Program-made: the position numbers and the translations under genes
The notes under the pieces: model-generated
What the model was told of the DNA's origin: nothing
Database searches by the model: none
The model's input: the letters and a program-made list of their open reading frames with translations, nothing else
Part shown: piece after piece, positions 1 to 53,183 of the stretch
Layout: every line of letters begins with the position of its first letter
Numbering within the stretch: position 1 is the first letter of the stretch
NCBI RefSeq assembly: GCF_014279975.1
Contig: NZ_CP047936.1
Location: 1,984,001-2,048,000, forward strand
Direction: 5' to 3'
Source of the DNA: Synechococcus sp. BIOS-U3-1
Lineage (GTDB): Bacteria > Cyanobacteriota > Cyanobacteriia > PCC-6307 > Cyanobiaceae
Length of the DNA: 64,000 nt

Positions 1-727
1 GGCCTGTGATCAGAAGTCCTTGCAAAGGCCTCAGAGACGCCCACAGACCTGAAAGATCCCGGCGAATCAAGGCGAACAGCATCAGGGTGATGCCTGTAAG
101 AACAACCGCTACAGGGCCTTTGGTCAGCACGGCGAAGGCCAGAACGATCCAGGCCAACCACCAACGCCGACCCGATCCACTCGCGTAGCAGCGCCATTGA
201 CAGAGCAAGCTGAGAGCGAGCGTCCCAGTGAGCAGCGAATCACTGACAGCGGTCCTGCTCCAGATCAGCACCAGTGGAGACAGGGCAAAAGCGAGCGCTG
301 AGGCGATGGCCGTCCGACGGGGAAACGAATCGCCCTGCAATGGGTACCGCAGCAGGGTGTCCCCGAGAGCGAGCATGGTCAGCACCGAAGCCAGGGCCGA
401 GGGCAGGCGGGCCGCCCATGTGCCGAGTGGATCCCAAAAAGTCCCTGCTGGCAGGGCATATCCCAGGCCCATCAACCAATACACCAGTGGTGGTTTATCG
501 AACCGGGGCAACCCGTTCACCCGAGGCGTGAGCCAGTCACCGGTCTCCGCCATGGCACGGCCAGATGCCGCGAATAAAGGCGGCGTTTCATCAACGAGAC
601 CTGTGCTGCCGAGCTGCCAACAGAAGATCGCCAATGCCAGTACGAGGATGAGCAGCATTCCACGCCTTCGCTGCCGAGCGGTTGGCAGAACGATGGAAGG
701 AATCTGGGCTGATGAATCCGCTGTCAT
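1..727 (-). CDS. ArnT/PMT-like lipid-linked glycosyltransferase (partial)
   Basis: Reading the minus strand from the ATG at 727 gives an open frame to the window edge (242 codons), so the C-terminus is missing. The N-terminus has one membrane segment (residues about 20-37) followed by the ArnT-type first-loop signature DETPPLFAASGRAM and RFDKPPLVYW. This loop carries the catalytic Asp/Glu of membrane glycosyltransferases that take the sugar from a polyprenyl-phosphate donor (GT83/GT39-like). More hydrophobic segments follow. The substrate is unknown; a cell-surface polysaccharide or lipid is likely. Its ATG overlaps the stop of the upstream GT4 gene (TGATG), so the two are probably co-translated. 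Confidence 0.85.
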   Translation of the reverse strand, partial: MTADSSAQIPSIVLPTARQRRRGMLLILVLALAIFCWQLGSTGLVDETPPLFAASGRAMAETGDWLTPRVNGLPRFDKPPLVYWLMGLGYALPAGTFWDPLGTWAARLPSALASVLTMLALGDTLLRYPLQGDSFPRRTAIASALAFALSPLVLIWSRTAVSDSLLTGTLALSLLCQWRCYASGSGRRWWLAWIVLAFAVLTKGPVAVVLTGITLMLFALIRRDLSGLWASLRPLQGLLITG

Positions 728-4718: not shown

Positions 4719-4771
4719 CCCTGGCTGATAAACTCGCTCCTTGACGAAAAGCCGGGTGCCGGAAAAATCTC

Positions 4772-4909: not shown

Positions 4910-4927
4910 TTCTCTCGAATTGCTGCG

Positions 4928-5748: not shown

Positions 5749-5823
5749 CACTGCGCACCAACGCAACGGCCTCGACGCTGTTGCACACTGGCATCACCCT
5801 TCACCGCCCATCGGAACGCCATC

Positions 5824-9000: not shown

Positions 9001-9072
9001 CGATCCGCCCCTTCGACCCGGGACGAACACAGCCAGGCTCCGTAGGTTCCATGCACCAGCGAAAGACCGGAA

Positions 9073-9234: not shown

Positions 9235-9293
9235 GAACAGTCAGACCGCTGACAACGGACGCCTAGGCTGCCGGCGCGATCATCCGAACCCCT

Positions 9294-10571: not shown

Positions 10572-10590
10572 AGGAACTGAAACGGGTTCC

Positions 10591-11673
10591 ATGAACGTTC
10601 TGGCCTCACTGCTGGCTCTGGGGCTGTTGATCGTCATTCATGAAGCGGGCCATTTTCTGGCTGCACGACTGCAGGGCATTCGTGTCAACGGCTTTTCTGT
10701 GGGCTTTGGACCAGCTCTGCTCAAAACCGAGCAGGGGGGTGTGACCTACGCCCTGAGATTGCTCCCTCTAGGTGGATTCGTTTCATTCCCGGAAGACGAC
10801 GAAGAGAGCGACATTCCCAAAGACGATCCGGATCTGCTGCGCAATCGGCCGATTCCACAGCAGATGCTGGTGATCAGTGCTGGCGTCCTCGCCAATCTGC
10901 TGCTGGCCTGGTTGGTTCTTGTGGGACACACCGCCACCACAGGAGTCCCTGGGGAAGCAGGACCAGGAGTGATGGTGATGAGCGTGCAGGGAGGTGAGCC
11001 GGCTGCTTTGTCCGGGCTAAAACCTGGCGATCGAATCCTGTCAATCGATGCGATTGATCTTGGCCGTGGAGAGCAGGCCGTCCAGGCCGCGGTGGATCCG
11101 ATTCGCAACAGCCCTGGCCTGCCGCTCACGCTGCAGGTGCTGCGCAACGATGTGCTCACACCTCTCCAGCTCACGCCTGCCGACCAGCAGGGTGTTGGTC
11201 GTATCGGCGCCCAGCTTCAGGAAGTCATCAGCGGCTCCACCCGACCAGTGCACTCACCGCTAGAAGCAGTCAGCGTGTCCAGCCAACAGTTCAGCGGGCT
11301 GTTCAGCCGAACAGTCTCGGGCTATGCAGGCTTATTCACCAATTTCGGCGCCACCGCTCAGCAGGTCTCAGGCCCGGTAAAGATTGTGGAAATGGGTGCA
11401 CAACTCTCAAGTCAGGGAGGGTCGGGTCTCGCGCTCTTTCTGGCGCTGATCTCCATCAACCTGGCAGTCCTCAACGCATTGCCACTGCCGCTGCTCGATG
11501 GCGGTCAGCTGGTGTTTCTACTGCTGGAGGGGCTACGCGGACGCCCACTACCGGAACGTTTTCAGCTGGCTGTGATGCAGTCCAGTCTGCTGTTAGTCCT
11601 CGGCCTCAGTGTGTTGCTGATCGTGCGTGACACCAGCCAACTTCCTGTGGTGCGTCAATTGATCGGCCAGTGA
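10591..11673 (+). CDS. rseP: RIP metalloprotease RseP/site-2 protease
   Basis: The 360-residue membrane protein has the zinc-binding HEAGH motif at residues 17-21 in the first helix, a PDZ domain near residues 125-205 ([12 protein letters not shown]) and the C-terminal [12 protein letters not shown] motif supplying the third zinc ligand. It performs intramembrane cleavage, releasing anti-sigma factors or clearing signal peptides. ATG 10591 is chosen because it places HEAGH at the usual distance; a longer in-frame start lies inside serS. Confidence 0.93.
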
Positions 11674-11716
11674 AACTGTATGGTTACCCATTGAACCGCT
11701 CCTTTTCACTCGCTGC

Positions 11717-12019
11717 ATGGCCAAGAAGTCGATGATCGCCCGCGATGCGAAGCGCAAGAAAATGGTTGAGCGCTTCTCAGCCAAGCGGACTGCCCTGATG
11801 GCCGCCTTCAACGCAGCGGATGGCCCCATGGAACGGCTTGAGATCCACCGCAAGATCCAGGCACTACCACGCAACAGTGCCCCTACACGCATGCGCAACC
11901 GCTGCTGGGCCACAGGTAAACCCAGAGGGGTTTACCGCGACTTCGGCCTCTGCCGCAATCAACTTCGTGAACGCGCCCACAAGGGCGAACTCCCAGGTGT
12001 CGTGAAGTCCAGCTGGTGA
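11717..12019 (+). CDS. rpsN: 30S ribosomal protein S14
   Basis: The 100-residue basic protein begins [20 protein letters not shown] and carries the typical C-terminal [24 protein letters not shown] segment. It is the zinc-independent S14 type: it lacks the CxxC zinc pairs of the short form. It is a small-subunit protein. A strong terminator follows at 12055. Confidence 0.96.
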
Positions 12020-12054
12020 TTTGTCCAGAGTCTGCTCAGAATTGATGCAGTTGA

Positions 12055-12080
12055 GGAGGTGTTTGAACACCTCCTTTTTT
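12055..12080 (+). terminator. Rho-independent terminator after rpsN
   Basis: A 9-bp perfect stem (GGAGGTGTT / AACACCTCC) with a 2-nt loop is followed by six T. It lies 35 bp after the rpsN stop and separates it from pnp. Confidence 0.9.
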
Positions 12081-12179
12081 GATGGATGTCACACACCGAA
12101 TCGAATTGGAATCAGTGGGATTGACGTTTCAATCCTGTGAAGTGCCAGAATAAAGATTGACAGAAAGACATAAACAACA

Positions 12180-14345
12180 GTGCAAGGTCAGACACAGTCG
12201 ATCTCCTTTGACGGTCGGGAGATTCGGTTGACCACGGGGCGGTATGCCCCCCAGGCCGGTGGCTCGGTGATGATCGAATGCGGTGACACTTCGGTGCTCG
12301 TCACAGCCACCCGATCCAAAGGGCGCGAAGGCATCGATTTCCTTCCCCTCATCTGCGACTACGAAGAGCGCCTTTATGCAGCAGGGCGCATTCCAGGAAG
12401 TTTCATGCGCCGTGAGGGAAGACCTCCCGAGCGAGCAACACTGATTTGCCGTTTGATTGACAGGCCGATGCGGCCTCTCTTTCCCAGCTGGATGAGAGAC
12501 GACATCCAAATCGTGGCCACATGCATGTCTCTCGACGAGCGCGTTCCTGCCGATGTGCTTTCGGTGACTGGAGCCTCGATGGCGACACTGTTGGCGGGCA
12601 TCCCTTTCCAAGGCCCGATGGCAGCGGTGAGGGTTGGGCTACTAGGCGACGACTTCGTGCTCAACCCCAGCTTCCGAGAGATCGAACGGGGAGACCTCGA
12701 CCTGGTCGTTGCTGGTACCCCCGATGGTGTGGTGATGGTTGAGGCAGGTGCAAACCAGCTTCCTGAAGGGGATGTGATTGAAGCCATCGACTTCGGATAT
12801 GAGGCGGTCTGTGAGCTCATCAAGGCTCAGGAATCCATCCTCAAAGAAGCTGGAATCGAGCAGGTCAAACCTGAAGCTCCAAGCACAGACACAACACTGC
12901 CGGTTTATCTCGAGAAAGCTTGCAGTAAATCGATTGGCGATGTCCTCAGCCAGTTCGATCAGAGCAAGGCCGAGCGTGACGAAAAGCTCGATGCGATCCG
13001 TGATCAAACCGCTGAAACCATCGCTGGTCTGAAAGACACAGACCCCGTTCGAGAGCTGGTTTCAGGCAACGGCAAAGCACTGCCAACCAGCTTCAAAGCT
13101 CTGACGAAAAAGCTGATGCGACAGCAGATCGTGAAGGACGGCAAACGTGTTGACGGCAGAACTCTCGATCAAGTGCGTCCGATCAGCGCTGCGGCCGGCG
13201 TGCTGCCCAAACGAGTTCACGGCTCTGGTCTGTTCCAGCGCGGCCTCACACAAGTGCTGTCGACCGCAACCCTCGGCACACCCAGCGATGCCCAGGAGAT
13301 GGACGATCTCAACCCCAACAGTGAGAAGACCTACCTCCATCACTACAACTTCCCTCCTTACTCGGTTGCCGAGACCAAGCCGATGCGGTCCCCTGGCAGG
13401 CGAGAAATCGGCCATGGAGCGCTCGCAGAACGCGCCATTTTGCCTGTGCTGCCAGCAAAAGACACCTTCCCGTACGTGGTGAGGGTAGTGAGCGAGGTTC
13501 TCAGCTCCAATGGCTCAACCTCAATGGGTTCAGTGTGCGGCAGCACCCTTGCCCTGATGGACGCCGGTGTGCCGTTGAAAGCACCCGTCAGCGGCGCCGC
13601 CATGGGTCTAATTAAAGAGGGCAAGGAAGTTCGCATCCTCACCGACATTCAGGGCATCGAGGACTTCCTTGGTGACATGGATTTCAAAGTGGCGGGTACC
13701 GACAAGGGCATCACTGCCCTGCAGATGGACATGAAGATCACCGGCCTGGAGATCAAGACCATTGCCGAGGCGATCAATCAGGCCCGTCCTGCCCGTCTCC
13801 ACATCCTCGAAAAGATGCTGGAAGCGATTGATGCCCCCCGTGATGGCATGTCACCCCATGCCCCGCGCCTGCTCAGCTTCCGCATCGACCCGGAACTGAT
13901 CGGCACCGTGATCGGTCCGGGTGGCCGCACCATCAAGGGAATCACCGAACGCACCAACACCAAGATCGACATCGAAGACAGCGGCATTGTCACCATCGCG
14001 TCCCATGACGGAGCGGCGGCTGATGAAGCTCAGAAAATCATCGAAGGTCTCACCCGCAAGGTGAATGAGGGCGAGGTGTTCAGTGGTTCTATTACCCGCA
14101 TCATTCCGATCGGCGCCTTTGTGGAGATCCTTCCTGGCAAAGAGGGCATGATCCACATCTCCCAGCTGTCAGAAGCTCGGGTCGAGAAGGTGGAGGACGT
14201 GGTGAAGGTGGGTGACGAGGTCACCGTTCGCGTCCGCGAGATCGACAACCGCGGCCGTATCAATCTGACGCTACGCGGTGTGCCCCAAAACGGGGAAGAG
14301 ATTGAGCCCGAACCTGCCCCCACACCCGTTGCGCCCCTCTCCTGA
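12180..14345 (+). CDS. pnp: Polyribonucleotide nucleotidyltransferase (PNPase)
   Basis: The 721-residue enzyme has two RNase PH domains joined by a helical domain, a KH domain ([15 protein letters not shown], residues about 575-590) and an S1 domain ([18 protein letters not shown], then GMIHISQL) near the C-terminus. It degrades RNA phosphorolytically from the 3' end; in cyanobacteria it also synthesises RNA tails. The start is GTG at 12180, just before [11 protein letters not shown]. The length is normal for the family. Confidence 0.96.
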
Positions 14346-14354
14346 GGTCTCGAT

Positions 14355-15272
14355 TCAGACCTGAAAATCTGGATCAATTCTCTCCATAGCCCGTGCCGCT
14401 CGCTTCTCAAGCGCGGCATGGGCTTTTCCATTGCTAGCGATCAGACAACCTGCCTGACGTACGTCTCCGGTGTTGTAAGTGAGCGGACGACCATCCGCAT
14501 GAGTGAAGGCACCACCAGCCGCTAGTAATACAGCCTCAGGGGCTGCCATATCCCAGTCTTTGGGAGCAGTCTTGCCCGACAACGAGATGTAGAGATCGGT
14601 CTCACCACGCAAAATGGTGGCCACCTTGCAGCCCACACTGCCCACAGCCTTGGAGCCGGCGAGGGGAAGAGCCGCGATCAGTTGTTCCAGGCGAGCATCC
14701 CGATGACTGCGGCTCGCCACCATGATCAGTTCTCCCTCTGCAGAGCGGTCGCTGAAGCGAACGGGGCTGCTCTTGCCGCTGCGGTTTTCGCACCAGCTGC
14801 CATCACCCACCAGGCCAAACCAGAGCTCATCAGCCTCGGGAAGCAACACCACTCCCAGTACAGGACGCTGACCCTGCACAAGCGCCAAATGCACCGCGTA
14901 TTCACCGGTGCCTTGCAAAAAATCCTTGGTGCCATCGAGAGGATCCAGAATCCAGAGCCATTCGGCCGGCAAAGGCTCCCCAGCAGTGAGCTGCTCCTTA
15001 GCCGTCTCCTCGCTCAGCAAGGTCCAGCCAGCATCAGGGAACGCTGAACCCAGACCATCGAGCAACCATTGATTCACGGCCAGATCCGCGGCAGACACTG
15101 GCCCCTCTCCACCATTGTCAACACTTAGAGCTCGGGAAAAACCATGGGGAGGCTGCTCACCGCGGGTATAAGCCCGCAAAATATCGGCGGCTCCCCAGCA
15201 CAGAGGGCGCAGTGTCTCGAGAAGGCTGTCCTGACTGATGCCAGCGGGCAGATTCATCGCAGTCGGCATCAT
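14355..15272 (-). CDS. cysQ: CysQ-like 3'(2'),5'-bisphosphate nucleotidase
   Basis: The 305-residue protein belongs to the inositol monophosphatase/CysQ superfamily. It has the metal-binding motif WILDPLDGTKDFLQGTGEYA and the second motif DWDMAAPEAVLLAAGG. It probably removes the 3' phosphate of PAP/PAPS from sulfate assimilation. The start is taken at the tandem ATG (15272); MNLPAG at 15257 is an alternative. Only about 24 bp separates it from the divergent rsmI, so the promoters must overlap the coding starts. It converges on pnp. Confidence 0.88.
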   Translation of the reverse strand: MMPTAMNLPAGISQDSLLETLRPLCWGAADILRAYTRGEQPPHGFSRALSVDNGGEGPVSAADLAVNQWLLDGLGSAFPDAGWTLLSEETAKEQLTAGEPLPAEWLWILDPLDGTKDFLQGTGEYAVHLALVQGQRPVLGVVLLPEADELWFGLVGDGSWCENRSGKSSPVRFSDRSAEGELIMVASRSHRDARLEQLIAALPLAGSKAVGSVGCKVATILRGETDLYISLSGKTAPKDWDMAAPEAVLLAAGGAFTHADGRPLTYNTGDVRQAGCLIASNGKAHAALEKRAARAMERIDPDFQV

Positions 15273-19374: not shown

Positions 19375-19608
19375 ATGACTACTTTCAACACTGACTACAA
19401 CAACACTGAACTGCTCGATCAAGAGCTGACGATTGATCAGCTTGAATACGTGGCTGGTGGATTTGCCACAATGCAAACTATTAGTGGAATTCCAGGTGAC
19501 CACTTAGCTGCGGTTGGCAGCGAGATTTATCACACGATTGTAGGAACAAAAGGCAGAGGGTTCCTGAATTCTTGGGGAAATGATTGTTTTGACTCAAGGG
19601 GGTGCTAG
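19375..19608 (+). CDS. Double-glycine leader bacteriocin-like peptide
   Basis: The 77-residue product has a 29-residue leader ending LLDQELTIDQLEYVAGG, the LxxxxLxxxxGG pattern cut by C39 peptidase domains. The core is 48 residues (FATMQTISGIPGDHLAAVGS onward), Gly-rich, with two Cys in NDCFDSRGC at the end that could form a disulfide. It follows module R2 and ends before a strong terminator. It is a likely substrate of the exporter at 45518-51488. Activity is unknown. Confidence 0.75.
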   Translation: MTTFNTDYNNTELLDQELTIDQLEYVAGGFATMQTISGIPGDHLAAVGSEIYHTIVGTKGRGFLNSWGNDCFDSRGC

Positions 19609-23490: not shown

Positions 23491-23567
23491 ACCCGAGGGA
23501 TAAGATTTCAACGTGAGGAGAAAAGCTCACGGGGTGGAAACAAGGACACACTCCCGCAGAGTTTTCG

Positions 23568-23597
23568 GAGCCCCTGCCTTTGGCGGGGGTTTCTTTT
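23568..23597 (+). terminator. Orphan GC-rich hairpin
   Basis: AGCCCCTGCCTTTGGCGGGGGTTTCTTTTT; a plus-strand terminator-like hairpin with no convincing plus-strand gene before it. Confidence 0.5.
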
Positions 23598-34561: not shown

Positions 34562-34577
34562 TGTGAGCAACATCACT
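34562..34577 (+). promoter_or_regulatory. CRP-like palindrome upstream of a GG peptide gene
   Basis: TGTGAGCAACATCACT differs from TGTGA-N6-TCACA in the last base only. It ends 100 nt before the ATG at 34677. Similar sites occur at the same distance before the peptide genes at 45224 and 53067. Confidence 0.5.
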
Positions 34578-34676
34578 GCACCGCTTGATGGTGGTCATCA
34601 CATCAGCCATTGATTAGGGAGATGCTGCATGAGTCGAAGGGATGACCTCCACACCACCACCCACCAACAACGAACC

Positions 34677-34901
34677 ATGACTACTGCTTTCACGACTGAA
34701 ACCGTCGACCAACAGCTTCAACTATCCGATCTTCAACAGCTGAATGGTGGCGGTGCCCCGCTTCTCCTCGCATGGGGCATGGGTGCAGCTACAGGAGCGA
34801 TGGCGATGTGGATCTATGAAAACGCTAATCGAGAAAAAATTGCTGATGCTGTTCATGACCTGATTAGCGGAGAATCAGAAAGCCAAAGAGGTAATTCCTA
34901 G
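34677..34901 (+). CDS. Double-glycine leader bacteriocin-like peptide
   Basis: The 74-residue peptide has a 25-residue leader (MTTAFTTETVDQQLQLSDLQ) ending QQLNGG. The core GAPLLLAWGMGAATGAMAMW has a GxxxG-rich hydrophobic helix and a polar tail rich in Glu and Ser. GxxxG-helix cores with GG leaders are typical of class II (two-peptide or microcin-like) bacteriocins. The inner ATG (34677) is chosen because it gives a standard leader length. A CRP-like site lies upstream. It is a likely substrate of the 45518 peptidase-exporter. Confidence 0.75.
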   Translation: MTTAFTTETVDQQLQLSDLQQLNGGGAPLLLAWGMGAATGAMAMWIYENANREKIADAVHDLISGESESQRGNS

Positions 34902-44665: not shown

Positions 44666-44961
44666 TCAACGATCGAGGTTAAGGCTGATCACTCAATGCA
44701 GGCCAACTCTTACAGGCAATAAAAAAATGAAACGGATTAACTCCGTTGCTCTTACCTCTAGAGCAAGAGTTGGCACCGTTACGGTTACGGAGACGAGGCT
44801 GGTGAAAGAGTGGCAGGATAACTCAAAGTTCCACGAAAGCAGCGAAACCGCTGATCGTTTTCAATTGTTCCAGGGTGAGTTGACTATTACTCATTGGGTG
44901 TTTCTTTAAATAGAAACACCATCTCGAAATGACGTTGTTCACAGACGCTAAGCGGTAATAA
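44666..44961. other. Stretch with one weak frame
   Basis: A 60-codon frame at 44727-44909 (MKRINSVALTSRARVGTVTV) has no signal, motif or clear ribosome binding site. It is left uncalled. Confidence 0.35.
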
Positions 44962-44986
44962 AAACCCCGCTCAAGAAAACGGGGAT
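44962..44986 (-). terminator. Terminator of the 45006 peptide gene (minus)
   Basis: On the minus strand CCCCGTTTTCTTGAGCGGGG followed by TTTTTATT, 20 bp after the stop. Confidence 0.82.
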
Positions 44987-45005: not shown

Positions 45006-45224
45006 TCACCATTCGCTCATAGGAAACATATTGGTAACAAGCGTCGATGAGCAGTTACTAGGTCGCTGATCTTTGATGAAAACTTTGCTTCGGCTCTTTG
45101 GTTCATACTTGTTCCACACTTTGTTGGTGCCTGCACCAACATCAGGTTCACTAATAAAGGAAACAAGATTGATCTTATTCCCACCAGAAATGGCAGACAG
45201 TTGATCGAGATTCAGTTCGTTCAT
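45006..45224 (-). CDS. Double-glycine leader bacteriocin-like peptide
   Basis: The 72-residue peptide has a short 15-residue leader MNELNLDQLSAISGG, the classic LxxLxxxxGG recognition element of C39 peptidases. The 57-residue core NKINLVSFISEPDVGAGTNK is polar and basic, with a single Cys. It lies immediately downstream of the exporter operon in the same direction, with its own terminator. Its upstream region shares a CRP-like palindrome and about 60 bp with the 52897 gene. It is the most likely cognate substrate of the exporter. Confidence 0.8.
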   Translation of the reverse strand: MNELNLDQLSAISGGNKINLVSFISEPDVGAGTNKVWNKYEPKSRSKVFIKDQRPSNCSSTLVTNMFPMSEW

Positions 45225-45315
45225 TGACTTTAAGTGTGTTGAGGGGAGATGCCCTGCGGCTCACATACCATCTCCGGATTCAGCGTCTTACTCAATGACC
45301 TACCTCATACAGGAC

Positions 45316-45331
45316 TGTGATCTTGCTCACA
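45316..45331 (+). promoter_or_regulatory. Perfect CRP-like palindrome
   Basis: TGTGATCTTGCTCACA fits TGTGA-N6-TCACA exactly and is flanked by C...G, extending the dyad. It lies 92 nt before the ATG of the minus-strand peptide gene (45224). Confidence 0.6.
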
Positions 45332-45517
45332 GGGTCAAGGCACACAAATAGATGAAATCAAGCCAATCACTCAATCAAAATTTCAGGCAAGTAACATGCA
45401 AAAGCTTTAATAATGACTACAGAGTGCCAAAAAGCTCTTGGACCGAAGAAATCTTCAAATAGCGTGATTAATGAATCGACTGCGCTGAAATTCCCAGCAC
45501 GAAACTCATGGATCACA

Positions 45518-47665
45518 TCAGTTGATTTCACTGATGAGCTGAACATAAGCTCCTTGAGGATCCTGCAACAGACTCTCATGAGTGCCCTGCTGGATCACCT
45601 TGCCTTCGTCCATCACCAAGATCAAATCAGCATCGCGGATCGTGCTTAAGCGGTGAGCAACAATCACCTGCGTACAGCCACGACGAGTGAGATTGGCGAT
45701 CAGTTTGCGTTCAGTCTCTGCATCTAGCGCCGATGTGGCTTCATCCATGATCAGGATGCTCGGGTTACACACCAGAGCTCTAGCCAACTCCAGCCTTTGA
45801 CGTTGACCACCAGAAAGGTTTCGCCCTCCTTCGCTAAGGAGCGTGTCGAGTCCTTCCGGCAATCCGCGTACCACCTCGAGGACTTCAGCTTCTCTACAAG
45901 CCTCGACCAGAATTTTGTCATCGATCGCTGGATTCCAGAGGCTGAGGTTGTCGCGCACACTGCAACCGAAAAGCTGAATCTCCTGCTGCACCATCGCCAA
46001 AGAGGAAACCACCACAGACCGGGGATGCTCCATCAAGGTTTTTCCATCGAACTGGATCGACCCACCGGTGGGTTGATGAAGGCCTGCCAACAACTTGGCC
46101 AACGTGCTCTTTCCACTGCCACTACCACCAACCAAAGCAACACGCATACCTGGATGGATCGTTAGCGACAAGCCATCGATCAGAGGAGCCTGGATTGCCG
46201 TGAAGCTGTACTTCAGCTCCTTGATTTCAATCCTGCCGCTGAGCCGCATGAGGGTCGATCCAGCTTTCAGCTGTTGGTCGCCGTTGAGAAGAGGGTCCTG
46301 AGGTTGTTCCAACACATCCTCAAGGCGTAGAACCCCGGCTGAAAAACCTGGCAATTGCTGCACAAAGCCAATCGCAGCCTCGATCTGCCCCTTGAGACTG
46401 AAAGCGATCGTCTGAGCCGCCAGCAACATGCCAAGCGTGAGCTCGCCCCGGATCACCAGAAAAAAACCAAGCAGAAGCACCGCCACTTCATTCAAGGTGG
46501 TCAGACCATTCGGGACCAGGCGCAGGCGGGCGTTGCGCAGCTGGAAGTCTTGAAGCGTGTTGAGCAAGCGGCTTTGGTATCCAGCAAAACGGCGGAACAC
46601 ATCGTGTTCAATCGCAGCAGCTTTAATCGTTTCGATATCGCGCATTGCGCTGACCACCACAGCCCCACTCTTGGCGGCATCCTTTTGCAGAGTCAGGCTT
46701 GCGTCTTTCTGAGTCCGCAAATTCCACTGCACCACAACGGCATTGATGCCAGTCGTTGTGAGAATCAACAGACCAAGCCAAGGGCTGTAGAGAAAGGTAA
46801 GGATCAGGTAAAAAACAAGCAGGACTAACCCAGTAAGCATCGGGATCAGACGCCCGCCGATGAACTCGGCGATGTCGAGGTTGGTGGCCATCCGTCCGGC
46901 AATATCAGACGCATAGCGTTGGCTGTAAAAACGCTCGGGAAGTCCAAGAATGTGATGCTCGAAGCCGATAGCGAAGCGGCGTGTCAAGCGCTTCTCGAGG
47001 CTGCGGGTTCCCACCAACTGCAGGTGTTGCAGCATCACTTGAAGACCAATGGTGAGAGCCATGGCCCAGAGCATCGGCTTCAGCCAGTTGTTCATTGCAT
47101 TGCCAATCACTTCATCCAGATAGATCTGGGCAAAAACCGGCATCACCAACTGGGGAAGAATGAGCAGCAATCCAGCGATGAGAATGAACGCCACCCCCAT
47201 TGGCTCGCTGGACATCCGATGGAACACAATCGGCCACACCGATGGGGCCCGGCCGCCACGTTGAAACTCCGGACCAGGTTCCATCGTCAGCACAATGCCC
47301 GTGTAGCTGCGGTCGAATTCTTCTCGGCTGACGGTGCGGGGACCCAGAGCAGGGTCATTGAGCGCCACAGCATCGCCTCGAAAACCCTCGAAGACCAGGA
47401 AGTGGTTGAACTCCCAAAACAGAATCGCCGGAGGCTTCAGCTGTTCGAGTGCTTCAAGGCCTTTTTGAAACCCCTTCGCTTGAAGGCCGAAGCTGCGAGC
47501 CGCCAGAACTAGATTGGCAGCATCACTACCATTGCGTGACACGCCGCACAATTCACGCAGTTGGGTGAGAGGCACATAGCGGCCGTAATACTGAAGAACA
47601 ATGCTGAGTGAAGCTGCACCGCATTCGGTGTTCTCCATCTGCAGCACCGTGGGCGTGCGTACCAT
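45518..47665 (-). CDS. NHLM-type peptidase-containing ABC exporter (ABC1)
   Basis: The 715-residue protein has an N-terminal C39 peptidase domain with catalytic Cys15 (QMENTECGA), His88 (FNHFLVFEG) and Asp104 (LNDPALGPR). A six-helix ABC membrane domain (about 155-440) follows, then a nucleotide-binding domain with Walker A GGSGSGKST, signature LSGGQRQRL and Walker B SILIMDEATSALD. It should cut leader peptides after Gly-Gly and export the core. Layout and partners match the NHLM bacteriocin export family. The start overlaps the stop of the HlyD-like gene. Confidence 0.93.
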   Translation of the reverse strand: MVRTPTVLQMENTECGAASLSIVLQYYGRYVPLTQLRELCGVSRNGSDAANLVLAARSFGLQAKGFQKGLEALEQLKPPAILFWEFNHFLVFEGFRGDAVALNDPALGPRTVSREEFDRSYTGIVLTMEPGPEFQRGGRAPSVWPIVFHRMSSEPMGVAFILIAGLLLILPQLVMPVFAQIYLDEVIGNAMNNWLKPMLWAMALTIGLQVMLQHLQLVGTRSLEKRLTRRFAIGFEHHILGLPERFYSQRYASDIAGRMATNLDIAEFIGGRLIPMLTGLVLLVFYLILTFLYSPWLGLLILTTTGINAVVVQWNLRTQKDASLTLQKDAAKSGAVVVSAMRDIETIKAAAIEHDVFRRFAGYQSRLLNTLQDFQLRNARLRLVPNGLTTLNEVAVLLLGFFLVIRGELTLGMLLAAQTIAFSLKGQIEAAIGFVQQLPGFSAGVLRLEDVLEQPQDPLLNGDQQLKAGSTLMRLSGRIEIKELKYSFTAIQAPLIDGLSLTIHPGMRVALVGGSGSGKSTLAKLLAGLHQPTGGSIQFDGKTLMEHPRSVVVSSLAMVQQEIQLFGCSVRDNLSLWNPAIDDKILVEACREAEVLEVVRGLPEGLDTLLSEGGRNLSGGQRQRLELARALVCNPSILIMDEATSALDAETERKLIANLTRRGCTQVIVAHRLSTIRDADLILVMDEGKVIQQGTHESLLQDPQGAYVQLISEIN

Positions 47666-48786
47666 CAGTAGACCCCCGTTAGATCGCGCAAAATCGGAAT
47701 CACGTAGCTAATCGGGCGTCGTTCCTCGACGAGAACCCGTACCTCTGTTGGGGTGCCTGTACTGATCTCTATGGCCGGCCCGGGGCCACCACCCCAGTCA
47801 TAACCACTGATGGTGCTGGGATCTCGCTTCAAAGAGGTCTTGACTTCGATCAGTGGACCTTTCGGTTGCTGGCGCACCGCATCTAAAAGCGATTCCAAAC
47901 CAAGGCGTTTGATCAGAGCCTGATCATTCACAGGTAGTCGACGGATACTGAGAACCTGCCCCTCAATGCCTCCGTGACGTTGCCGTTTGGTACTGCTTGG
48001 GCTGATCCTGACCCGCTGACCCGCCTTCAGTCGCTTGCCATCACCAGGGGAGAAGAAAGCCAAACTCTCCAAACTGGATTGTCTTCCGCCCGCATCCAAC
48101 GTGAACAAGGTGCTCGCGGGTTGCACCACTTCTCCACGGTGCACGTTCCGGTCAATCACGCAGCCATTGATCGGTGCCCTAATCTGAGCGATGCGATTGA
48201 TCTCCTCGCTACGAGCCTTAATACGGGCCTGCTGCTGCTTGATGTGTTGTTGGCGCTGCCCGTTCTGAGATGCAAGAGAGTAGATCAAGCTACTGAGTTC
48301 CCGCTGTTGTCGGGCAAGGTCGTCGAGCGGGATGCCTCCGCTGCGAGCCAGCTTCTCGATACGGGCAATCTGAGCCTTCTGTTGACGGACCCGGATCGCA
48401 CCAAGGGCATCTTCCTCAAGGTCCTGACTGATCAATTGCTCGAGCTGTATCTCAGCTTCCTTACGACTCATCTCCTGCGTTACAGGATCGATTCTCGCCA
48501 TCAACTTCCCTCTCTTTACGCAGTCACCGATGGCGTTGTTGAGCTCCAGAATCCTGCCAGCTGTCTCGCTTTGCACCACCGTGAGGCTGTTGGATCGGAT
48601 CAGCACTCCCTTGCCACTGATGCGAACAGGCAAACGGCCAAACACCGACCAGAGACCAATGGTGAGGCAGAAGCCTCCAAGTGACAGCAAAAGAAGCCAT
48701 TGCCCGGGTCGAAGAAGGCGAAGAGGCTGATCTAGTTTTTCAGGACTGGAGAGAGCATCCAGTGCATTCTTGCGAAACAGGCTCAT
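47665..48786 (-). CDS. HlyD-family adaptor of the NHLM export system
   Basis: The 373-residue protein has one N-terminal membrane helix (WLLLLSLGGFCLTIGLWSVF), a split lipoyl/barrel-sandwich region (VRISGKGVLI and RAPINGCVIDRNVHRGEVVQ) and a coiled-coil hairpin between (residues about 115-205). It links the inner-membrane ABC transporters to the outer envelope. ATG 48786 is chosen because it overlaps the upstream stop (ATGA). It is third in the four-gene operon. Confidence 0.9.
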   Translation of the reverse strand: MSLFRKNALDALSSPEKLDQPLRLLRPGQWLLLLSLGGFCLTIGLWSVFGRLPVRISGKGVLIRSNSLTVVQSETAGRILELNNAIGDCVKRGKLMARIDPVTQEMSRKEAEIQLEQLISQDLEEDALGAIRVRQQKAQIARIEKLARSGGIPLDDLARQQRELSSLIYSLASQNGQRQQHIKQQQARIKARSEEINRIAQIRAPINGCVIDRNVHRGEVVQPASTLFTLDAGGRQSSLESLAFFSPGDGKRLKAGQRVRISPSSTKRQRHGGIEGQVLSIRRLPVNDQALIKRLGLESLLDAVRQQPKGPLIEVKTSLKRDPSTISGYDWGGGPGPAIEISTGTPTEVRVLVEERRPISYVIPILRDLTGVY

Positions 48787-51488
48787 GTGATCTGACGCTG
48801 CATCATCCGGAAGAACAGACCCTCGTTCTGCAGCAAGGTCTCGCAACTACCCTGCTCTCGCACCTGACCCTGGTCGATGACGACGATCCGATCAGCATGA
48901 CGAATGGTGCTGAGGCGATGGGCAATCACAACGCGGGTGATGGCCATCGCCTCCAAGCTTCCGGTGACGATGGCCTGGGTTCGATTATCGAGGGCGCTGG
49001 TGGCCTCGTCGAAGATCAGAATCCGAGGCTTACGAATCAGCGCCCGGGCAATGGCAACCCGCTGACGCTGACCGCCAGAGAGGGTGGCTCCACCCTCGGG
49101 AATCATGGTTTGCAAACCCATTGGCATTGACCGGATCTCATCGGCCAGGCCGGCCAGTTCGGCGGCATGCCAGACCTCCTCCTCTTCGACCACACTGCCC
49201 CCGGCAATCGCCTCCAGCAAAGTGCCTGTTAACAACGTGTTGGTTTGCAGCACCGTACCGATCTGACGACGGACGCTGTCCAGCCGCATTCCGCTCAGAG
49301 GTTTGCCATCAAATCGGACTTCTCCATCTTCAGGAGCGGCAAAGCCCAAGAGAAGTCGTACCAGTGTGGATTTACCAGACCCTGAAGGACCCACGATGGC
49401 GAGATGTTCTCCTGCACTTGCCTCCATGCTGACGCCATCGAGCACCAATGGCAGATCTGCGGAGTAGCGATAACTGACCCGGTCAAGCTGGATCTGTCCC
49501 TCAAGAGCGCCTGCATCCTCCTTCAAGTCGATAATCTCGGGAGCAGTATCCAGGATGGGACGGGCTCGCTCATAAAGCACCGGCATATCAAAAGCCCCAA
49601 CCAACAATCCAGCGAATCCAGCAGCTGCACCGATGAAGGTCCCGAAGGCCGAAAAGAAGCCAAGCAGCTGACCAACATTTGGAGCATTGAGACTTGGACT
49701 GTTGGCGGCCTCCGCAATCAGCCTGGTGATCACGATATAAAGAAGCAAAGTGCCGAGATTTGGCATCACCCCATTGAGAAGCGCAGCAGTTGCTTCCTTG
49801 GCATCAAGGGCATTTTCTAAGTCGACGATTTTTTGAAACTCCTGACCCCACCAGCGGGCCCCAGCAGTTTCGGCGCCGGCCAGGCGCAACTTGGAAACAG
49901 AACCGATCAGTTCAAGATTGCGGCTCTGAGCCTGCCCCTGGGCCTCTTCCTGATGACGTTGCAATGGTCTTGACTGCAGACCAATCAGAGCTGTGGGCAA
50001 CAGAATCAGGGCAGCCACTACAAGGGCAAGGGCTGTCAGTTTCACGCTGATGCGAAGCATGAACAGGATGTAGACGCTGGTAAGAACAAGCCTGAGCAAC
50101 CCCCCCTCGAGAAGTTGCTGAATTTCACCACGCAGTTCATCCAGGGCACCGAACCTCAGCTGTAAATCACCAACGTTGCGGAGACGGAAGAATTCAGCGG
50201 GTAATCGCAGCAGTCGATGCATGCCGGCAAGCTGAGCGCGCGCCGCACCTCGTTGCTGACTGAGCTGCACCGCGCGGTTCTGGACCCATTCAAAGCAAAC
50301 TCGAGCCACGCCAGCGGCAAACAGGATGAAGCTGATTTGCAGCAGCAGTCCCAGATCGCGATCGGGAAGAGCCTGATTCGTGATCACCGTATTGAACGTA
50401 GGTGTCAGCAACGAGAGCAGAGTCGATATCAGCATGACGCCAACTCCAAGGCGGAATCCACCGCTCAACACCCCCAGACAGGCCCCCGTAAGAAGACCTG
50501 TAAAACCCATACCAAAGATCCAGCGAGCTGCTCCCACATCCCGACCGATCGCAAGCAGGAACCCAACGAACACTCCGATAAGCAGCCCACCAATCACAAA
50601 ACTGGTGGTATTTCGGGGCTGGCCGTAGGCGAAGCGAAGCAGTCCGAGAGTGCTGAGGTCTTTGGTTTGAAACGCCGGACTGATACTGAGCATCCGCGGC
50701 GACAGCCGTTTCAAAAAACCACTGCAATGTGCCAACGGCTGAGGATGAGCCATCTCACCCGGCACCCATGCGCGATAGCCCTTAGCCGTCGACTGAAGCA
50801 AGACCACCACACCCTCACCCTCATCATCCGAATCGGTCTCCAGAAAGCCGATCAGATCTCCACAGTCTTTTTGAAGATCAGCAAGGTTGATCAGAATGTC
50901 ACGGGCGAATAGGTCGGTTCGAGAGAGCAATTGCTCAAGTCGAAGCCGTGGCTCAAGGTCCAACTGACGCGTCGGCAATGGTGGCACTGCTCCATGGTCC
51001 GTACACAACAGGGTCAGGGCACGCAGCACCGGATCGTCGGATTCGACTTGTGACGACTGACCCTGCTCCATGGCCAAAACAAGGTTCTGGGTGGCATTGA
51101 TATTCAGCGGTTGATGGCCATCGAGTAGAGCCTGATGACGCTGCTCGAATTGATGGTGCAGCACTGTCAGTTTGTTGAGCCATTGATCGCTAGTCGGCAC
51201 TGGAGACGGTGAAACTCCGAGGTCTTGACTCACCTGCTCATCGAGCCAGCACAGACCCTGCTGATAGGGCCCCTCAGGGAAGATCTCCAAATGGCTCTCC
51301 TGAATGGCCTTAAGCATGATTTGAATCGGAGCACCGGTTGCATCCGACAGGCCCGGATAGACGATGTTTTGTTGTAGGCGCAGAACACCGAACGCATGGT
51401 CGCCATGGGACTCCAGCAAAAGCACTCCAGCAGTGATGCGGAAAGGCTCTGAGGGCCATGGGTGATCACTACCGGCATTCCATCTCAT
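48783..51488 (-). CDS. NHLM-type ABC transporter with long N-terminal domain (ABC2)
   Basis: The 901-residue protein has an N-terminal soluble region of about 290 residues with no protease Cys, a six-helix membrane domain (about 300-600) and a nucleotide-binding domain (Walker A GPSGSGKST, LSGGQRQRV, ILIFDEATSALD). The N-terminal domain is characteristic of the second ABC protein of NHLM systems. It probably forms a complex with the 45518 and 47665 products. It overlaps genes on both sides by four bases, so the operon is translationally coupled. Confidence 0.91.
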   Translation of the reverse strand: MRWNAGSDHPWPSEPFRITAGVLLLESHGDHAFGVLRLQQNIVYPGLSDATGAPIQIMLKAIQESHLEIFPEGPYQQGLCWLDEQVSQDLGVSPSPVPTSDQWLNKLTVLHHQFEQRHQALLDGHQPLNINATQNLVLAMEQGQSSQVESDDPVLRALTLLCTDHGAVPPLPTRQLDLEPRLRLEQLLSRTDLFARDILINLADLQKDCGDLIGFLETDSDDEGEGVVVLLQSTAKGYRAWVPGEMAHPQPLAHCSGFLKRLSPRMLSISPAFQTKDLSTLGLLRFAYGQPRNTTSFVIGGLLIGVFVGFLLAIGRDVGAARWIFGMGFTGLLTGACLGVLSGGFRLGVGVMLISTLLSLLTPTFNTVITNQALPDRDLGLLLQISFILFAAGVARVCFEWVQNRAVQLSQQRGAARAQLAGMHRLLRLPAEFFRLRNVGDLQLRFGALDELRGEIQQLLEGGLLRLVLTSVYILFMLRISVKLTALALVVAALILLPTALIGLQSRPLQRHQEEAQGQAQSRNLELIGSVSKLRLAGAETAGARWWGQEFQKIVDLENALDAKEATAALLNGVMPNLGTLLLYIVITRLIAEAANSPSLNAPNVGQLLGFFSAFGTFIGAAAGFAGLLVGAFDMPVLYERARPILDTAPEIIDLKEDAGALEGQIQLDRVSYRYSADLPLVLDGVSMEASAGEHLAIVGPSGSGKSTLVRLLLGFAAPEDGEVRFDGKPLSGMRLDSVRRQIGTVLQTNTLLTGTLLEAIAGGSVVEEEEVWHAAELAGLADEIRSMPMGLQTMIPEGGATLSGGQRQRVAIARALIRKPRILIFDEATSALDNRTQAIVTGSLEAMAITRVVIAHRLSTIRHADRIVVIDQGQVREQGSCETLLQNEGLFFRMMQRQIT

Positions 51489-52498
51489 GGCGTAGCGAGC
51501 TCTCCACGTTGAAAGTATTGGCAGAGCCAATCAAAATGACGAGCAGCGCGTGTGATAGCGCCAAGTTGATCGACGTCGAGGCAATCAATTGCTTGTTGTT
51601 CGGCTCGCTGAATCGCCTCAGCTCGTTGATGACTCTGAAGCTGATCGCGGCTTCGTCGACAGAGCATGCAAGCCAAGCCCCTGTAAAAGCGAGAGCCCAG
51701 TTCGGGGTTTTGCCTGAGTTCTGCGCGCAAAGCACTAAGCTCAATCGCGAGTAAATCCATTCCCAGAGCAGAACGGACCCCTAACGAAGCTCCGTGTCGA
51801 TCACTTAAGAGCAGAGAGATTTCACCCAGAAGTTCACCTCGTCTTGAGCTGCCCACCACTTGAGTTCTGCCGTCAAGAGTGAACAGAACCTCCGCCTCAC
51901 CACTCAACACCAAATAAGTAGACGTCACCTCATCACCCTGATTCAGCAGCACCGTCTCGGGGGGCACACGTTGTAACCGGCCGAGGCGAGCAAGCGTGAA
52001 AACATCCTGTTCCTGAAGGGTGGCGAACAGGGTCAACCCCTTTCTGAGAGCCTCCACAGGCGCATGATCACTGTGACATCGATGAACCCAAGCGTTCTGG
52101 TCCTGAATCTGAACAGCCAGTTTCTGTGCAATAACCCGATCAAACTGAGCAGCCATCGATGGCTGTTCCTTTGACAACAGCTCGAACTTTTCAACAGAAA
52201 GTTGCAGCACCTTGCACACACCGAATGTGGTGATGGTTGCCGTAGCAGGTCGGTCCTCCAGCAAGCTCATTTCACCCACCATGCTTCCAGCGGCAAGTTT
52301 TGCCACTTGCTCCTGGCCCTGCTGCAAGCTGGAGGGAGTAGCGATCAGACAACCTGACAACAGCAGCATCGGATTAAGACGACGCTCCCCCTCCTTGATC
52401 AGGACCTGATCGGACTGAAACGTAACCGTCTCGCCATTAGTCAGGAGCCAACTGCGCAGTTCCGGACTGATCCAATTGAAGACGTTGAAGGGAGACAT
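51485..52498 (-). CDS. Double cyclic-nucleotide-binding-domain protein
   Basis: The 337-residue protein has two cNMP-binding domains: residues about 15-120 (GSMVGEMSLLEDRPATATI) and about 160-270 (GELLGEISLLLSDRHGASL). Both have the beta-roll phosphate-binding cassette pattern, although the PBC Arg is replaced or shifted in the second. No helix-turn-helix follows, so it is not a CRP-type DNA binder; the C-terminus is helical. It is the first gene of the exporter operon and may gate transport in response to cAMP/cGMP. Confidence 0.85.
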   Translation of the reverse strand: MSPFNVFNWISPELRSWLLTNGETVTFQSDQVLIKEGERRLNPMLLLSGCLIATPSSLQQGQEQVAKLAAGSMVGEMSLLEDRPATATITTFGVCKVLQLSVEKFELLSKEQPSMAAQFDRVIAQKLAVQIQDQNAWVHRCHSDHAPVEALRKGLTLFATLQEQDVFTLARLGRLQRVPPETVLLNQGDEVTSTYLVLSGEAEVLFTLDGRTQVVGSSRRGELLGEISLLLSDRHGASLGVRSALGMDLLAIELSALRAELRQNPELGSRFYRGLACMLCRRSRDQLQSHQRAEAIQRAEQQAIDCLDVDQLGAITRAARHFDWLCQYFQRGELATP

Positions 52499-52749
52499 CG
52501 CTCAGTAAAATCGCAGTCCGTCCCAACGAACAAATTTCTTTTCAAGCATGCACACGAATCGCTGCAAGCGACCAATGATTTACGGCAATGAAATGCCTAC
52601 ATCAGTGACTTGAAACAAGCTCGCCTGGCGAACGATATAAATAAGTTTTGCTTATACAAAGCAAAAATCTCCACGAGTGGTTCTGAAACAGAGGCTGGTC
52701 TCTAAAGGAACAAAGAGCGCAATGACAGCCGGAGATGGCCACAGTTAAA
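52499..52749. other. Exporter operon 5' region
   Basis: Non-coding stretch between the CNB gene and the 52750 terminator; it must hold the operon promoter. I see no CRP-like palindrome in it. Confidence 0.45.
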
Positions 52750-52783
52750 CAAAACCCCCCACTGCGGAAAGTGGGGTCTTGAT
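52750..52783 (-). terminator. Terminator of the 52897 peptide gene (minus)
   Basis: On the minus strand CCCCACTTTCCGCAGTGGGG followed by GGTTTTGTTT: a seven-bp stem with a T-rich tail. Confidence 0.82.
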
Positions 52784-52896
52784 CAATGCCTGAGACAAAG
52801 TTGAATACCAAACGTTGCCAATAGAAGCGTGCTGGCCGGGAGGCAGATGAACGCTGCCAGCCTGGTTGCCACCGGCGAAGATTGTGATGATCTTGA

Positions 52897-53067
52897 TCAC
52901 TTCATCGGCGTAGTCACCAACTTCCTGCTCCCCGTCGCCATCCCGAAGATTTTCTCAAACCAATGCCCGACTTTGGTTTTGGCCTTATTGCCGCCGCCGC
53001 TGATGGTGGCAAGCTCATCGAGCTGCAGCTCATGGTCTATGAGGGCTCTGATGAAGGTTGTGGCCAT
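52897..53067 (-). CDS. Double-glycine leader bacteriocin-like peptide
   Basis: The ATG at 53067 gives a 56-residue peptide with leader MATTFIRALIDHELQLDELA ending ATISGG and a 31-residue basic core GNKAKTKVGHWFEKIFGMATGSRK plus tail. The core is cationic and amphipathic, as in class II bacteriocins, with no Cys. A longer in-frame extension to 53166 is unlikely. It lies just upstream of the exporter operon in the same direction and shares upstream sequence and a CRP-like site with the 45006 gene. Confidence 0.78.
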   Translation of the reverse strand: MATTFIRALIDHELQLDELATISGGGNKAKTKVGHWFEKIFGMATGSRKLVTTPMK

Positions 53068-53167
53068 AGTTCTGCTTGATTCATGAAGAGGTGTGGAGGT
53101 CATCCCTCCGACCCCCACACCATCTGCGGATTCAGCGTCTGACTTGATGACCTGCCTCATGGGCACC

Positions 53168-53183
53168 TGTGGTCCTGCTCACA
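53168..53183 (+). promoter_or_regulatory. CRP-like palindrome (one mismatch)
   Basis: TGTGGTCCTGCTCACA differs from TGTGA-N6-TCACA at one base. It is 101 nt before the ATG at 53067. Confidence 0.52.

What the first reader, a model, noticed from the sequence alone, without database searches (positions are those of the whole stretch)
45006..53067. Complete NHLM-type export operon flanked by its probable peptide substrates
Seen: four overlapping minus-strand genes (double cNMP-binding protein, ABC transporter with long N-terminal domain, HlyD-like adaptor, C39 peptidase-ABC exporter) with double-glycine peptide genes immediately upstream (52897) and downstream (45006). Known: NHLM/Nif11 systems pair such exporters with GG-leader peptides. 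Inference: the two short-leader peptides and the island's Nif11 precursors are all exported by this one machine. The single-glycine-pair leaders here are not Nif11-type, so one exporter may serve two unrelated leader classes.
Basis: partly seen in the sequence, partly recalled or inferred. Interest (0 to 1): 0.78.

Follow-up and report, generated by a model that had tools for sequence, protein, structure and literature searches.

The report
CRP-linked exporter for short-leader peptides
This stretch of a marine cyanobacterial genome holds a known type of peptide-export machine with small secreted-peptide genes on both sides; comparison with 200 relatives suggests that it ships these short-leader peptides, switched on by a cyclic-AMP-type regulator, while a second machine elsewhere ships the lanthipeptides.

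Summary
Four minus-strand genes (double cNMP protein, long ABC2, HlyD, C39-ABC1) form an NHLM / Wang-group-V-like export cassette with a double-glycine peptide gene on each side. The inference that this one machine also exports the Nif11 (prochlorosin) precursors is not supported: the genome has a second cassette (TolC, HlyD, C39-ABC, ABC2) directly followed by its only LanM, 1.17 Mb away. Over 201 sampled family genomes, NHLM presence tracks short-leader (CCRG-2) peptides at either LanM status, and LanM tracks Nif11 expansions at either NHLM status.

New here: the two flanking peptides, and a third in the window that the finding does not mention (34677-34901), have their own conserved promoter cassette: tandem CRP-type sites, a GAT[A/G]GT-like hexamer, usually a short stem-loop, ATG mostly 106-108 nt from the site. 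237 sites against 3 for the reversed pattern occur in the 201 genomes. 10 of 13 NHLM genomes carry at least 7, and all ten have a CRP-family regulator with an RETxxR helix, within 20 kb of the exporter in 7. In three NHLM-less genomes, none of 19 sites examined precedes a GG peptide. Export specificity and cAMP control are untested at the bench.

The parts
45518..47665 (-). NHLM-type ABC1: C39 peptidase-permease-ATPase, 715 aa, C15/H88/D104
   Evidence: TIGR03796 999.7 bits over cut-off; Pfam C39 + ABC; motifs
47665..48846 (-). HlyD-like adaptor, 393 aa
   Evidence: TIGR03794 241.8 bits over cut-off
48783..51530 (-). ABC2 without C39, long N-terminal domain, 915 aa
   Evidence: TIGR03797 595.6 bits, best family but below cut-off 709.4; no C39 among its Pfam hits
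51485..52498 (-). double cNMP-binding transport-associated protein, 337 aa, no HTH domain found
   Evidence: TIGR03896 246.3 bits over cut-off; PF00027 in two stretches, no other Pfam hit at E <= 0.1
45006..45224 (-). short-leader GG peptide MNELNLDQLSAISGG|NKINL..., 72 aa
   Evidence: core conserved in L242 of G169
52897..53067 (-). short-leader GG peptide MATTFIRALIDHELQLDELATISGG|GNKAK..., 56 aa
   Evidence: no relative with a kept core among the fetched loci
34677..34901 (+). third short-leader GG peptide, not mentioned in the finding: MTTAFTTETVDQQLQLSDLQQLNGG|GAPLLLAWGMG..., 74 aa
   Evidence: found through its tandem site; homologues in G056 (58%) and G190 (50%)
44823..44894 (-). probable decayed copy of a short-leader peptide gene (MSNSQLTLEQLKTISGFAAFVEL)
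45296..45331 (-). tandem CRP-type site, 0 mismatches, starting 107 nt before the ATG of the 45006 gene
   Evidence: similar position in relatives
53148..53183 (-). tandem CRP-type site, 1 mismatch, starting 116 nt before the ATG of the 52897 gene
34562..34597 (+). tandem CRP-type site, 1 mismatch, starting 115 nt before the ATG of the 34677 gene
45267..45272 (-). GATGGT hexamer at +60..65 of the site; inferred -10, which would centre the second CRP half-palindrome at -41.5
   Evidence: alignment A1; hexamer counts
45242..45255 (-). short stem-loop AGGG(CATCTC)CCCT before the ATG
44965..44984 (-). terminator-like site after the 45006 peptide gene
52757..52776 (-). terminator-like site between the 52897 peptide gene and the exporter operon
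19375..19608 (+). CCRG-2-like peptide of the other promoter type (class B): MTTFNTDYNNTELLDQELTIDQLEYVAGG|FATMQ...

Best explanation
The operon is a group-V / NHLM-like cleavage-and-export machine dedicated mainly to unmodified-looking, short-leader double-glycine peptides that are encoded singly beside it and around the genome. Each of the three class A peptide genes in the window (shown) has its own promoter cassette with tandem CRP-type sites. A CRP-family activator (gene at about 2.5366 Mb, outside the window) binds them and switches the peptides on in a class-II-type geometry (inferred). The peptide is made with a 15-25 residue leader, the C39 domain of ABC1 cuts after GG, and ABC1/ABC2/HlyD with an outer-membrane channel export the core (inferred from the families). 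The Nif11 prochlorosins go through the separate TolC-HlyD-C39ABC-ABC2 cassette next to LanM (inferred from adjacency and co-occurrence).
For: Cassette identity. Second exporter adjacent to LanM: with a C39 domain; the two ABC1 proteins are 35% identical and fall in separate clades, 100/100, in a tree of 18 rows (8 of 26 intended loci were missed by the script's pattern, 6 of them of the LanM-side type, of which only 2 remained). The third long ABC exporter of the genome (C1:100653) shows no Pfam C39 domain at E <= 0.001. Co-occurrence in 201 genomes (tests, which ignore phylogeny): NHLM x CCRG-2 8 of 13 vs 2 of 188, p = 1e-9; it holds within LanM+ (p = 0.005) and LanM- (p = 0.0003), whereas LanM does not predict CCRG-2 once NHLM is fixed (p = 0.18, 1.0). 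LanM predicts >= 8 Nif11 matches within NHLM+ (p = 6e-4) and NHLM- (p = 1e-5), whereas NHLM does not once LanM is fixed (0.12, 1.0). Promoter: 237 tandem sites vs 3 for the reversed pattern in 201 genomes (summed); 10 of 13 NHLM genomes have >= 7 sites, and NHLM x (>= 5 sites) is 10 of 13 vs 7 of 188, p = 2e-10. In the window genome 7 of 10 sites precede GG peptides. CRP-family protein: 19 of 20 fetched candidate loci gave a clear orthologue; cNMP and Crp-HTH domains over Pfam cut-offs; FGEM..RSA and RETASR stretches align with solved CRP-family proteins.
Against: The curated ABC2 model is not reached (595.6 < 709.4). In 8 of 13 NHLM loci no short-leader gene was detected within the fetched 13-20 kb. 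G141 has NHLM, LanM and 11 sites but no CCRG-2 match at E <= 0.005; G075 and G166 (81% complete) have CCRG-2 and no NHLM over cut-off; 5 of 13 NHLM genomes have no CCRG-2 match; G085, G090 and G118 have NHLM but no sites. Site-rich genomes without NHLM exist (G186, G061, G101, G123, G004, G098, G166), so the CRP regulon is wider than this exporter; and LanM itself is associated with sites (7 of 13 vs 10 of 188, p = 1e-5). Orthologues of the regulator occur in genomes with few sites (G193 2, G181 1, G009 3). The 18-position CCRG-2 model is weak, Fisher tests ignore relatedness, and the GG-proximal leader motif is shared by both classes. The exporter operon itself has no such site. cAMP binding, DNA binding, cleavage and export were not tested.
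Confidence: 0.62

Rival explanations
1. One promiscuous exporter: the NHLM machine cleaves and exports both short-leader peptides and Nif11 precursors.
For: Both leader classes end in the same ELxxxELxxxxGG motif. LahT150 shows that a C39 domain can be very tolerant of leader sequence (PMC6363468, passages). Wang 2011 proposed that the stand-alone LanM works with the two group V clusters in MIT9313 (PMC3140520, passages).
Against: A dedicated exporter lies next to LanM. G193, G186, G047 and G082 have LanM and >= 8 Nif11 matches but no NHLM over cut-off; G056 and G190 have NHLM and 10 and 7 CCRG-2 matches with no LanM and at most one Nif11 match at E <= 1e-10.
Confidence: 0.15
2. The short-leader peptides are exported by the LanM-side exporter or by the long-type ABC exporter at C1:100653, and the NHLM operon carries unknown cargo.
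For: G075 and G166 carry CCRG-2 without a detected NHLM; in 8 of 13 NHLM loci no short-leader gene was found nearby.
Against: NHLM predicts CCRG-2 within both LanM strata; peptide genes sit on both sides of the operon here and next to ABC1 in G056. G166 is only 81% complete. The 100.6-kb exporter shows no Pfam C39 domain at E <= 0.001, although its TIGR03796 match starts at model position 57 and a divergent domain is possible. Its distribution across genomes was not tested.
Confidence: 0.15
3. The upstream element is not a CRP operator but a duplicated sequence carried along with copied peptide genes.
For: Leaders and upstream DNA are strongly alike among paralogues, two genes being near-copies. 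Regulator orthologues also occur in site-poor genomes.
Against: Half-sites and spacing are kept while the spacers vary, in several genera (half-sites are partly fixed by the search pattern, the GAT hexamer is not). The same cassette precedes unrelated larger proteins, three of nine tested with RTX repeats over the Pfam cut-off. 15 of 17 genomes with >= 5 sites have the RETxxR protein (the G098 candidate was not an orthologue, G004 was not fetched), while the one orthologue with RGTTSR (G090) has 0 sites. Stem-loops are kept with different paired letters: 34 of 47 GG-linked sites vs 3.5 in mononucleotide shuffles.
Confidence: 0.1

Closest known systems
Group V bacteriocin gene clusters of cyanobacteria (Wang et al. 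2011, PMC3140520, passages) / NHLM export cassette (Haft et al. 2010, recalled)
   Same: Short-type C39-ABC, second ABC without C39, HlyD and a protein of two CAP_ED domains; GG-leader peptides nearby.
   Different: ABC2 scores below the NCBIfam NHLM cut-off; probable cargo here is short-leader CCRG-2-like peptides rather than NHLP or Nif11 precursors; CRP-type promoters are not mentioned in the passages read.
CCRG-2 family RiPP precursors (NF033456; described in PMC8120280, passages, as small secreted peptides of Prochlorococcus and Synechococcus)
   Same: Leader end ELxLDQLxxISGG; genomic relatives with the same promoter cassette score over the cut-off (L009 and L010 35.8, L013 24.1 bits).
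   Different: The two flanking peptides are below the cut-off or unmatched; the 34677 peptide was not among the matches.
Prochlorosins (Nif11 leader + ProcM/LanM; PMC10783134: abstract, one section, passages)
   Same: Many scattered precursors with a constant leader and variable core; GG cleavage site.
   Different: Long Nif11 leader, LanM partner, a separate exporter cassette, a different upstream sequence.
CRP regulons of cyanobacteria (Xu & Su 2009, PMC2633013: passages and one section)
   Same: CRP gene and sites predicted in MIT9313, MIT9303, CC9311, CC9605 and eight others; pseudo-palindromic sites.
   Different: No link to GG peptides or to NHLM, and no tandem-site cassette, in what was read; its supplementary tables were not seen.
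Class II bacteriocins / class II microcins (recalled)
   Same: Several cores are small, hydrophobic and Gly/Ala-rich, and no modification gene lies in the operon.
   Different: No bacteriocin family over cut-off for the two flanking peptides (PF10439 16.1 bits, cut-off 27.1, for the 52897 peptide); no activity known.

Membership tests
NHLM export cassette (NCBIfam equivalogs) | ABC1 over TIGR03796 cut-off | tested here: met
   999.7 vs 853.3
NHLM export cassette (NCBIfam equivalogs) | HlyD over TIGR03794 cut-off | tested here: met
   241.8 vs 156.2
NHLM export cassette (NCBIfam equivalogs) | ABC2 over TIGR03797 cut-off | tested here: not met
   595.6 vs 709.4, though the best family by about 300 bits; so it works like an NHLM cassette but is not filed as a full member
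NHLM export cassette (NCBIfam equivalogs) | NHLP-type (nitrile-hydratase-like) leader precursors in the genome | not tested
   model not run on the genome
Wang group V cluster | short-type C39-ABC + ABC without C39 + HlyD | tested here: met
Wang group V cluster | bimodular protein of two CAP_ED (cNMP) domains | tested here: met
   TIGR03896 over cut-off; two PF00027 stretches
CCRG-2 RiPP (NF033456) | 45006 and 52897 peptides over the curated cut-off of 24 bits | tested here: not met
   18.4 bits and no hit
CRP/FNR transcription factor (the regulator at 2.5366 Mb) | cNMP_binding plus Crp-type HTH over Pfam cut-offs | tested here: met
   70.1 vs 27.5 and 43 vs 27
CRP/FNR transcription factor (the regulator at 2.5366 Mb) | E. 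coli CRP equivalog (PRK11753) over cut-off | tested here: not met
   54.2 vs 266
CRP/FNR transcription factor (the regulator at 2.5366 Mb) | cAMP binding and binding to TGTGA-N6-TCACA | not testable with these tools
   only residue-level agreement (RETxxR, FGEM..RSA)
Nif11 / prochlorosin precursor | Nif11 leader in the flanking peptides | tested here: not met
   no TIGR03798 hit for either peptide at E <= 0.1

The most novel reading that the evidence does not exclude
A patchily distributed, cAMP-type regulon of exported peptides: a CRP-family activator, an NHLM-like exporter and a portable promoter-plus-leader cassette travel together among marine picocyanobacteria. New peptide cores come under one switch and one exporter simply by being fused behind the cassette, while in strains without the exporter the same cassette drives larger, partly RTX-type proteins. 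The peptides would be cAMP-controlled intercellular signals or bacteriocins, run in parallel with, and separately from, the prochlorosin system.
Probability: 0.4. Interest if true: 0.78.

Novelty: new variant of a known kind. Interest (0 to 1): 0.6.

Why it matters
In the passages and sections read, the exporters of prochlorosins and of CCRG-2 peptides are not assigned by experiment. One group reports that the protease domain of a transporter from Prochlorococcus MIT9313 did not prove active in their hands (PMC6363468, passage); which transporter was used was not seen. Genome G071, which by its length is MIT9313 (recall), carries both exporter types, so choosing the right one matters. The work gives a concrete pairing of exporter and substrate class, and a regulator plus operator that could tell when abundant ocean cyanobacteria secrete peptides. 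It also gives a DNA signature (tandem CRP cassette) that can find peptide genes that protein models miss, as it did here at 34677-34901.

Tried and rejected
Rfam on the window at gathering thresholds: only a tRNA and Cyano-1 RNA, so the upstream element reached no known RNA family. Cotranscription of the peptides with the exporter was judged unlikely because of separate upstream elements and terminator-like sites. A site in front of the exporter operon itself was looked for and not found at <= 1 mismatch for the single palindrome or <= 2 for the tandem pattern. The single palindrome is a poor guide: 4 in the window against 2.87 expected; genome-wide 78 against 28 for the reversed pattern at <= 1 mismatch, and of its 10 perfect copies 8 lie in the cassette while those at 701010 and 1958770 have no tandem partner. 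Class B upstream sequences (7 of 10 CRP letters at best) were not pursued. An automatic GG-leader pattern missed obvious leaders (for example MNNNELTFDQLTEISGG, and at least three in the 'others') and wrongly accepted two G004 proteins; counts of what follows the sites were therefore read by eye, and the '47 GG / 43 other' split is approximate. The first tree lost the LanM-side proteins through a script filter, and the second still held only two. One search used a wrong query (a long ORF that is not NtcA) and was replaced. An earlier count said 4 reversed-pattern matches; the table shows 3. I first took the 100.6-kb exporter for a third C39 exporter; Pfam shows no C39 domain there. Structure prediction, fold search and RNA models were not used.
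Full report
WHAT IS THERE. The window lies at C1:1984001-2048000 of a 2.71-Mb single-contig genome of a marine-Synechococcus-like cyanobacterium. The closest ABC1 proteins in named genome records are those of a Synechococcus MAG (96% in its best segment), Synechococcus CPC35 (86%) and UW105 (81%); G169 has UW105's contig length. The four minus-strand genes are as described: three of four curated NHLM models are reached and ABC2 is not. The arrangement equals group V of Wang et al. 2011 (PMC3140520, passages). Among the 13 sampled family genomes with ABC1 over cut-off, the order cNMP2-ABC2-HlyD-ABC1 was seen in 11 counting the window; G190's contig ends inside ABC2, and G090 showed no cNMP2 match. 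G139's ABC1 carries two in-frame stops.

THE PEPTIDE GENES. Both flanking GG peptides exist. Each has an upstream element of its own and a terminator-like site behind it. The element contains a palindrome TGTGA-N6-TCACA, then TGA-N6-TCA with centres 22 bp apart. A search of the window for the tandem pattern found a third copy at 34562, and 115 nt from its start the ATG of a 74-aa GG peptide whose core is kept in G056 (58%) and G190 (50%). The core of the 45006 peptide is kept in G169 (55%); for the 52897 peptide no kept core was found in the fetched loci. A 23-aa ORF at 44823-44894 looks like a decayed copy.

TWO EXPORTERS, TWO LEADER CLASSES. The genome has 36 Nif11-leader matches that pass the model's cut-off on their own, plus one that passes with its neighbour, and 19 CCRG-2 matches at E <= 0.01, eight of them over the cut-off, three of these only with their neighbours in the frame, scattered and often intermixed. 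It has one LanM, and directly before it a TolC-HlyD-C39ABC-ABC2 set (L074). So another dedicated exporter exists, but for the Nif11 class. A further long ABC exporter at C1:100653 shows a cNMP-like but no C39 domain in Pfam at E <= 0.001. Across 201 genomes drawn from the family (thresholds E 1e-150, 1e-20, 1e-10, 0.005): ABC1 over cut-off in 13, LanM over cut-off in 13 (14 with a fragment), at least 8 Nif11 matches in 12 (counts stop at 28), CCRG-2 in 10. The stratified tests give a double dissociation. With LanM: NHLM+ 5 of 6 have CCRG-2, NHLM- 0 of 7. Without LanM: 3 of 7 against 2 of 181. With NHLM: LanM+ 6 of 6 have Nif11 expansions, LanM- 0 of 7. Without NHLM: 4 of 7 against 2 of 181. 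Exceptions are told under evidence against. These tests treat genomes as independent, which they are not; NHLM together with CCRG-2 appears in four genera (g1, g30, g56, g11).

THE PROMOTER CASSETTE. The tandem pattern with at most one mismatch occurs in 39 of 201 genomes, 237 times, against 3 for the pattern read backwards (sum). 17 genomes have at least 5. An alignment of 37 upstream regions, 36 chosen because a GG leader follows and one for the 1143-kb gene, shows GAT at +60-62 invariant, which is not part of the search pattern. Among 47 sites in my fetched loci that a script called GG-linked, the hexamer at +60..65 is GATAGT or GATGGT in 36 (29 of 43 other sites of site-rich genomes, 0 of 14 isolated sites), and a stem-loop within +70 to +108 occurs in 34 (shuffled mean 3.5); for the other two sets it occurs in 23 of 43 (5.0) and 6 of 14 (3.2). 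ATG lies at +106-108 in 31 of the 47. If the hexamer is a -10, the second palindrome is centred at -41.5, the usual place for class II CRP activation (recalled knowledge; inference). The GG share of my fetched sites is biased, because many loci were fetched around CCRG-2 matches.

THE REGULATOR. With the last whole-genome search I looked for Crp-type HTH domains in 40 genomes chosen by their site counts (its list of matches was cut). I fetched 20 candidates: 19 are clear orthologues of one CRP-family protein (187 bits or more to the window genome's copy) and the G098 candidate is not. It is present in 15 of the 17 genomes with at least 5 sites (G098 not found, G004 not fetched), among them all ten NHLM genomes with at least 7. 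It lies within 20 kb of the exporter in 7 of those ten (G139, G056, G190, G071, G029, G141, G169), and 505 kb away in the window genome. The recognition helix reads RETASR or RETTSR in all but G090 (RGTTSR), and G090 has NHLM but 0 sites. Orthologues also occur in genomes with few sites (G193 2, G181 1, G009 3). Solved relatives are CRP-family proteins including E. coli CAP. The double cNMP protein of the operon has no HTH hit and is not this regulator.

WHAT THE SITES DRIVE. Window genome: all 10 sites examined; 7 precede GG peptides, 2 an identical pair of 285-aa proteins with only a weak RTX-model match (21.9 bits, cut-off 1000; no Pfam hit), and 1 a 222-aa protein starting MGVFAKLDG, a motif that also opens several GG-peptide cores. 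Read by eye, site-rich genomes without NHLM give: G186 0 GG peptides at 9 examined of 16 sites, G061 0 at 7 of 10 (one undetermined), G101 0 at 3 of 7, G004 1 at 4 of 5. There the sites mostly precede larger proteins; of nine such proteins from various genomes given to Pfam, three have RTX repeats over the cut-off and one below it. G190 gives 9 of 9 and G056 12 of 14 (GG, GS or GA ends), but those loci were fetched mostly for their CCRG-2 matches. G166, where NHLM was not seen, gives 5 of 5.

LITERATURE. Searches showed no title or abstract start that links CRP with GG peptides or with NHLM in picocyanobacteria. Most subscription papers are not held, including the paper cited for CCRG-2. Xu & Su 2009 (passages and one section) predicted CRP sites in MIT9313 and relatives and noted many hypothetical targets; its supplementary tables were not seen. 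That G071 is MIT9313 rests on its length, 2,410,873 bp, and recall.

VERDICT. A known exporter type with a newly supported cargo class and a newly described promoter cassette.

Noticed in passing
L074 (G000:C1:848000-864000), 3637-14369: Prochlorosin-type cassette TolC-HlyD-C39ABC-ABC2-LanM; LanM also lies next to ABC2, on either strand, in G141, G193, G169 and G120.
   Followed up: partly
window 23507-23570 (+): Cyano-1 RNA (RF01701, 56.5 bits) close to Nif11 genes.
   Followed up: no
class B genes among L009-L028, e.g. window 19375-19608: A second large set of short-leader peptides with near-identical leaders and upstream DNA (TGTAGTGGGGTTCACC...CTTGAAGGAGTCGAGGGGGCAACACCCCC) but unrelated cores; a different, at most 7-of-10 CRP-like element.
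   Followed up: partly
L075:2086-2943 and 3760-4617 (+): Two identical 285-aa ORFs about 1.7 kb apart, each behind a perfect tandem CRP-type site; only a weak RTX-model match.
   Followed up: partly
L060:1608-2276 (+), G000 1143 kb: 222-aa protein starting MGVFAKLDG behind the cassette; the same motif opens GG-peptide cores in G071, G056, G190 and G169, as if a core had been placed behind the promoter without a leader.
   Followed up: partly
G090 CRP-family protein (L334): Recognition helix RGTTSR instead of RETxxR, and no tandem sites in that genome although it carries NHLM.
   Followed up: partly
L191:649-759 (-), G190: 24-bp perfect inverted repeat overlapping the promoter hexamer and the region before the start of one GG peptide.
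   Followed up: no
G139:C85:39329-41467: NHLM ABC1 with two in-frame TGA stops about 3 kb from an intact-looking CRP-family gene.
   Followed up: no
L082:4636-7584 (-), G000 100.6 kb: 982-aa long ABC exporter with a weak cNMP match and no recognised C39 domain.
   Followed up: partly
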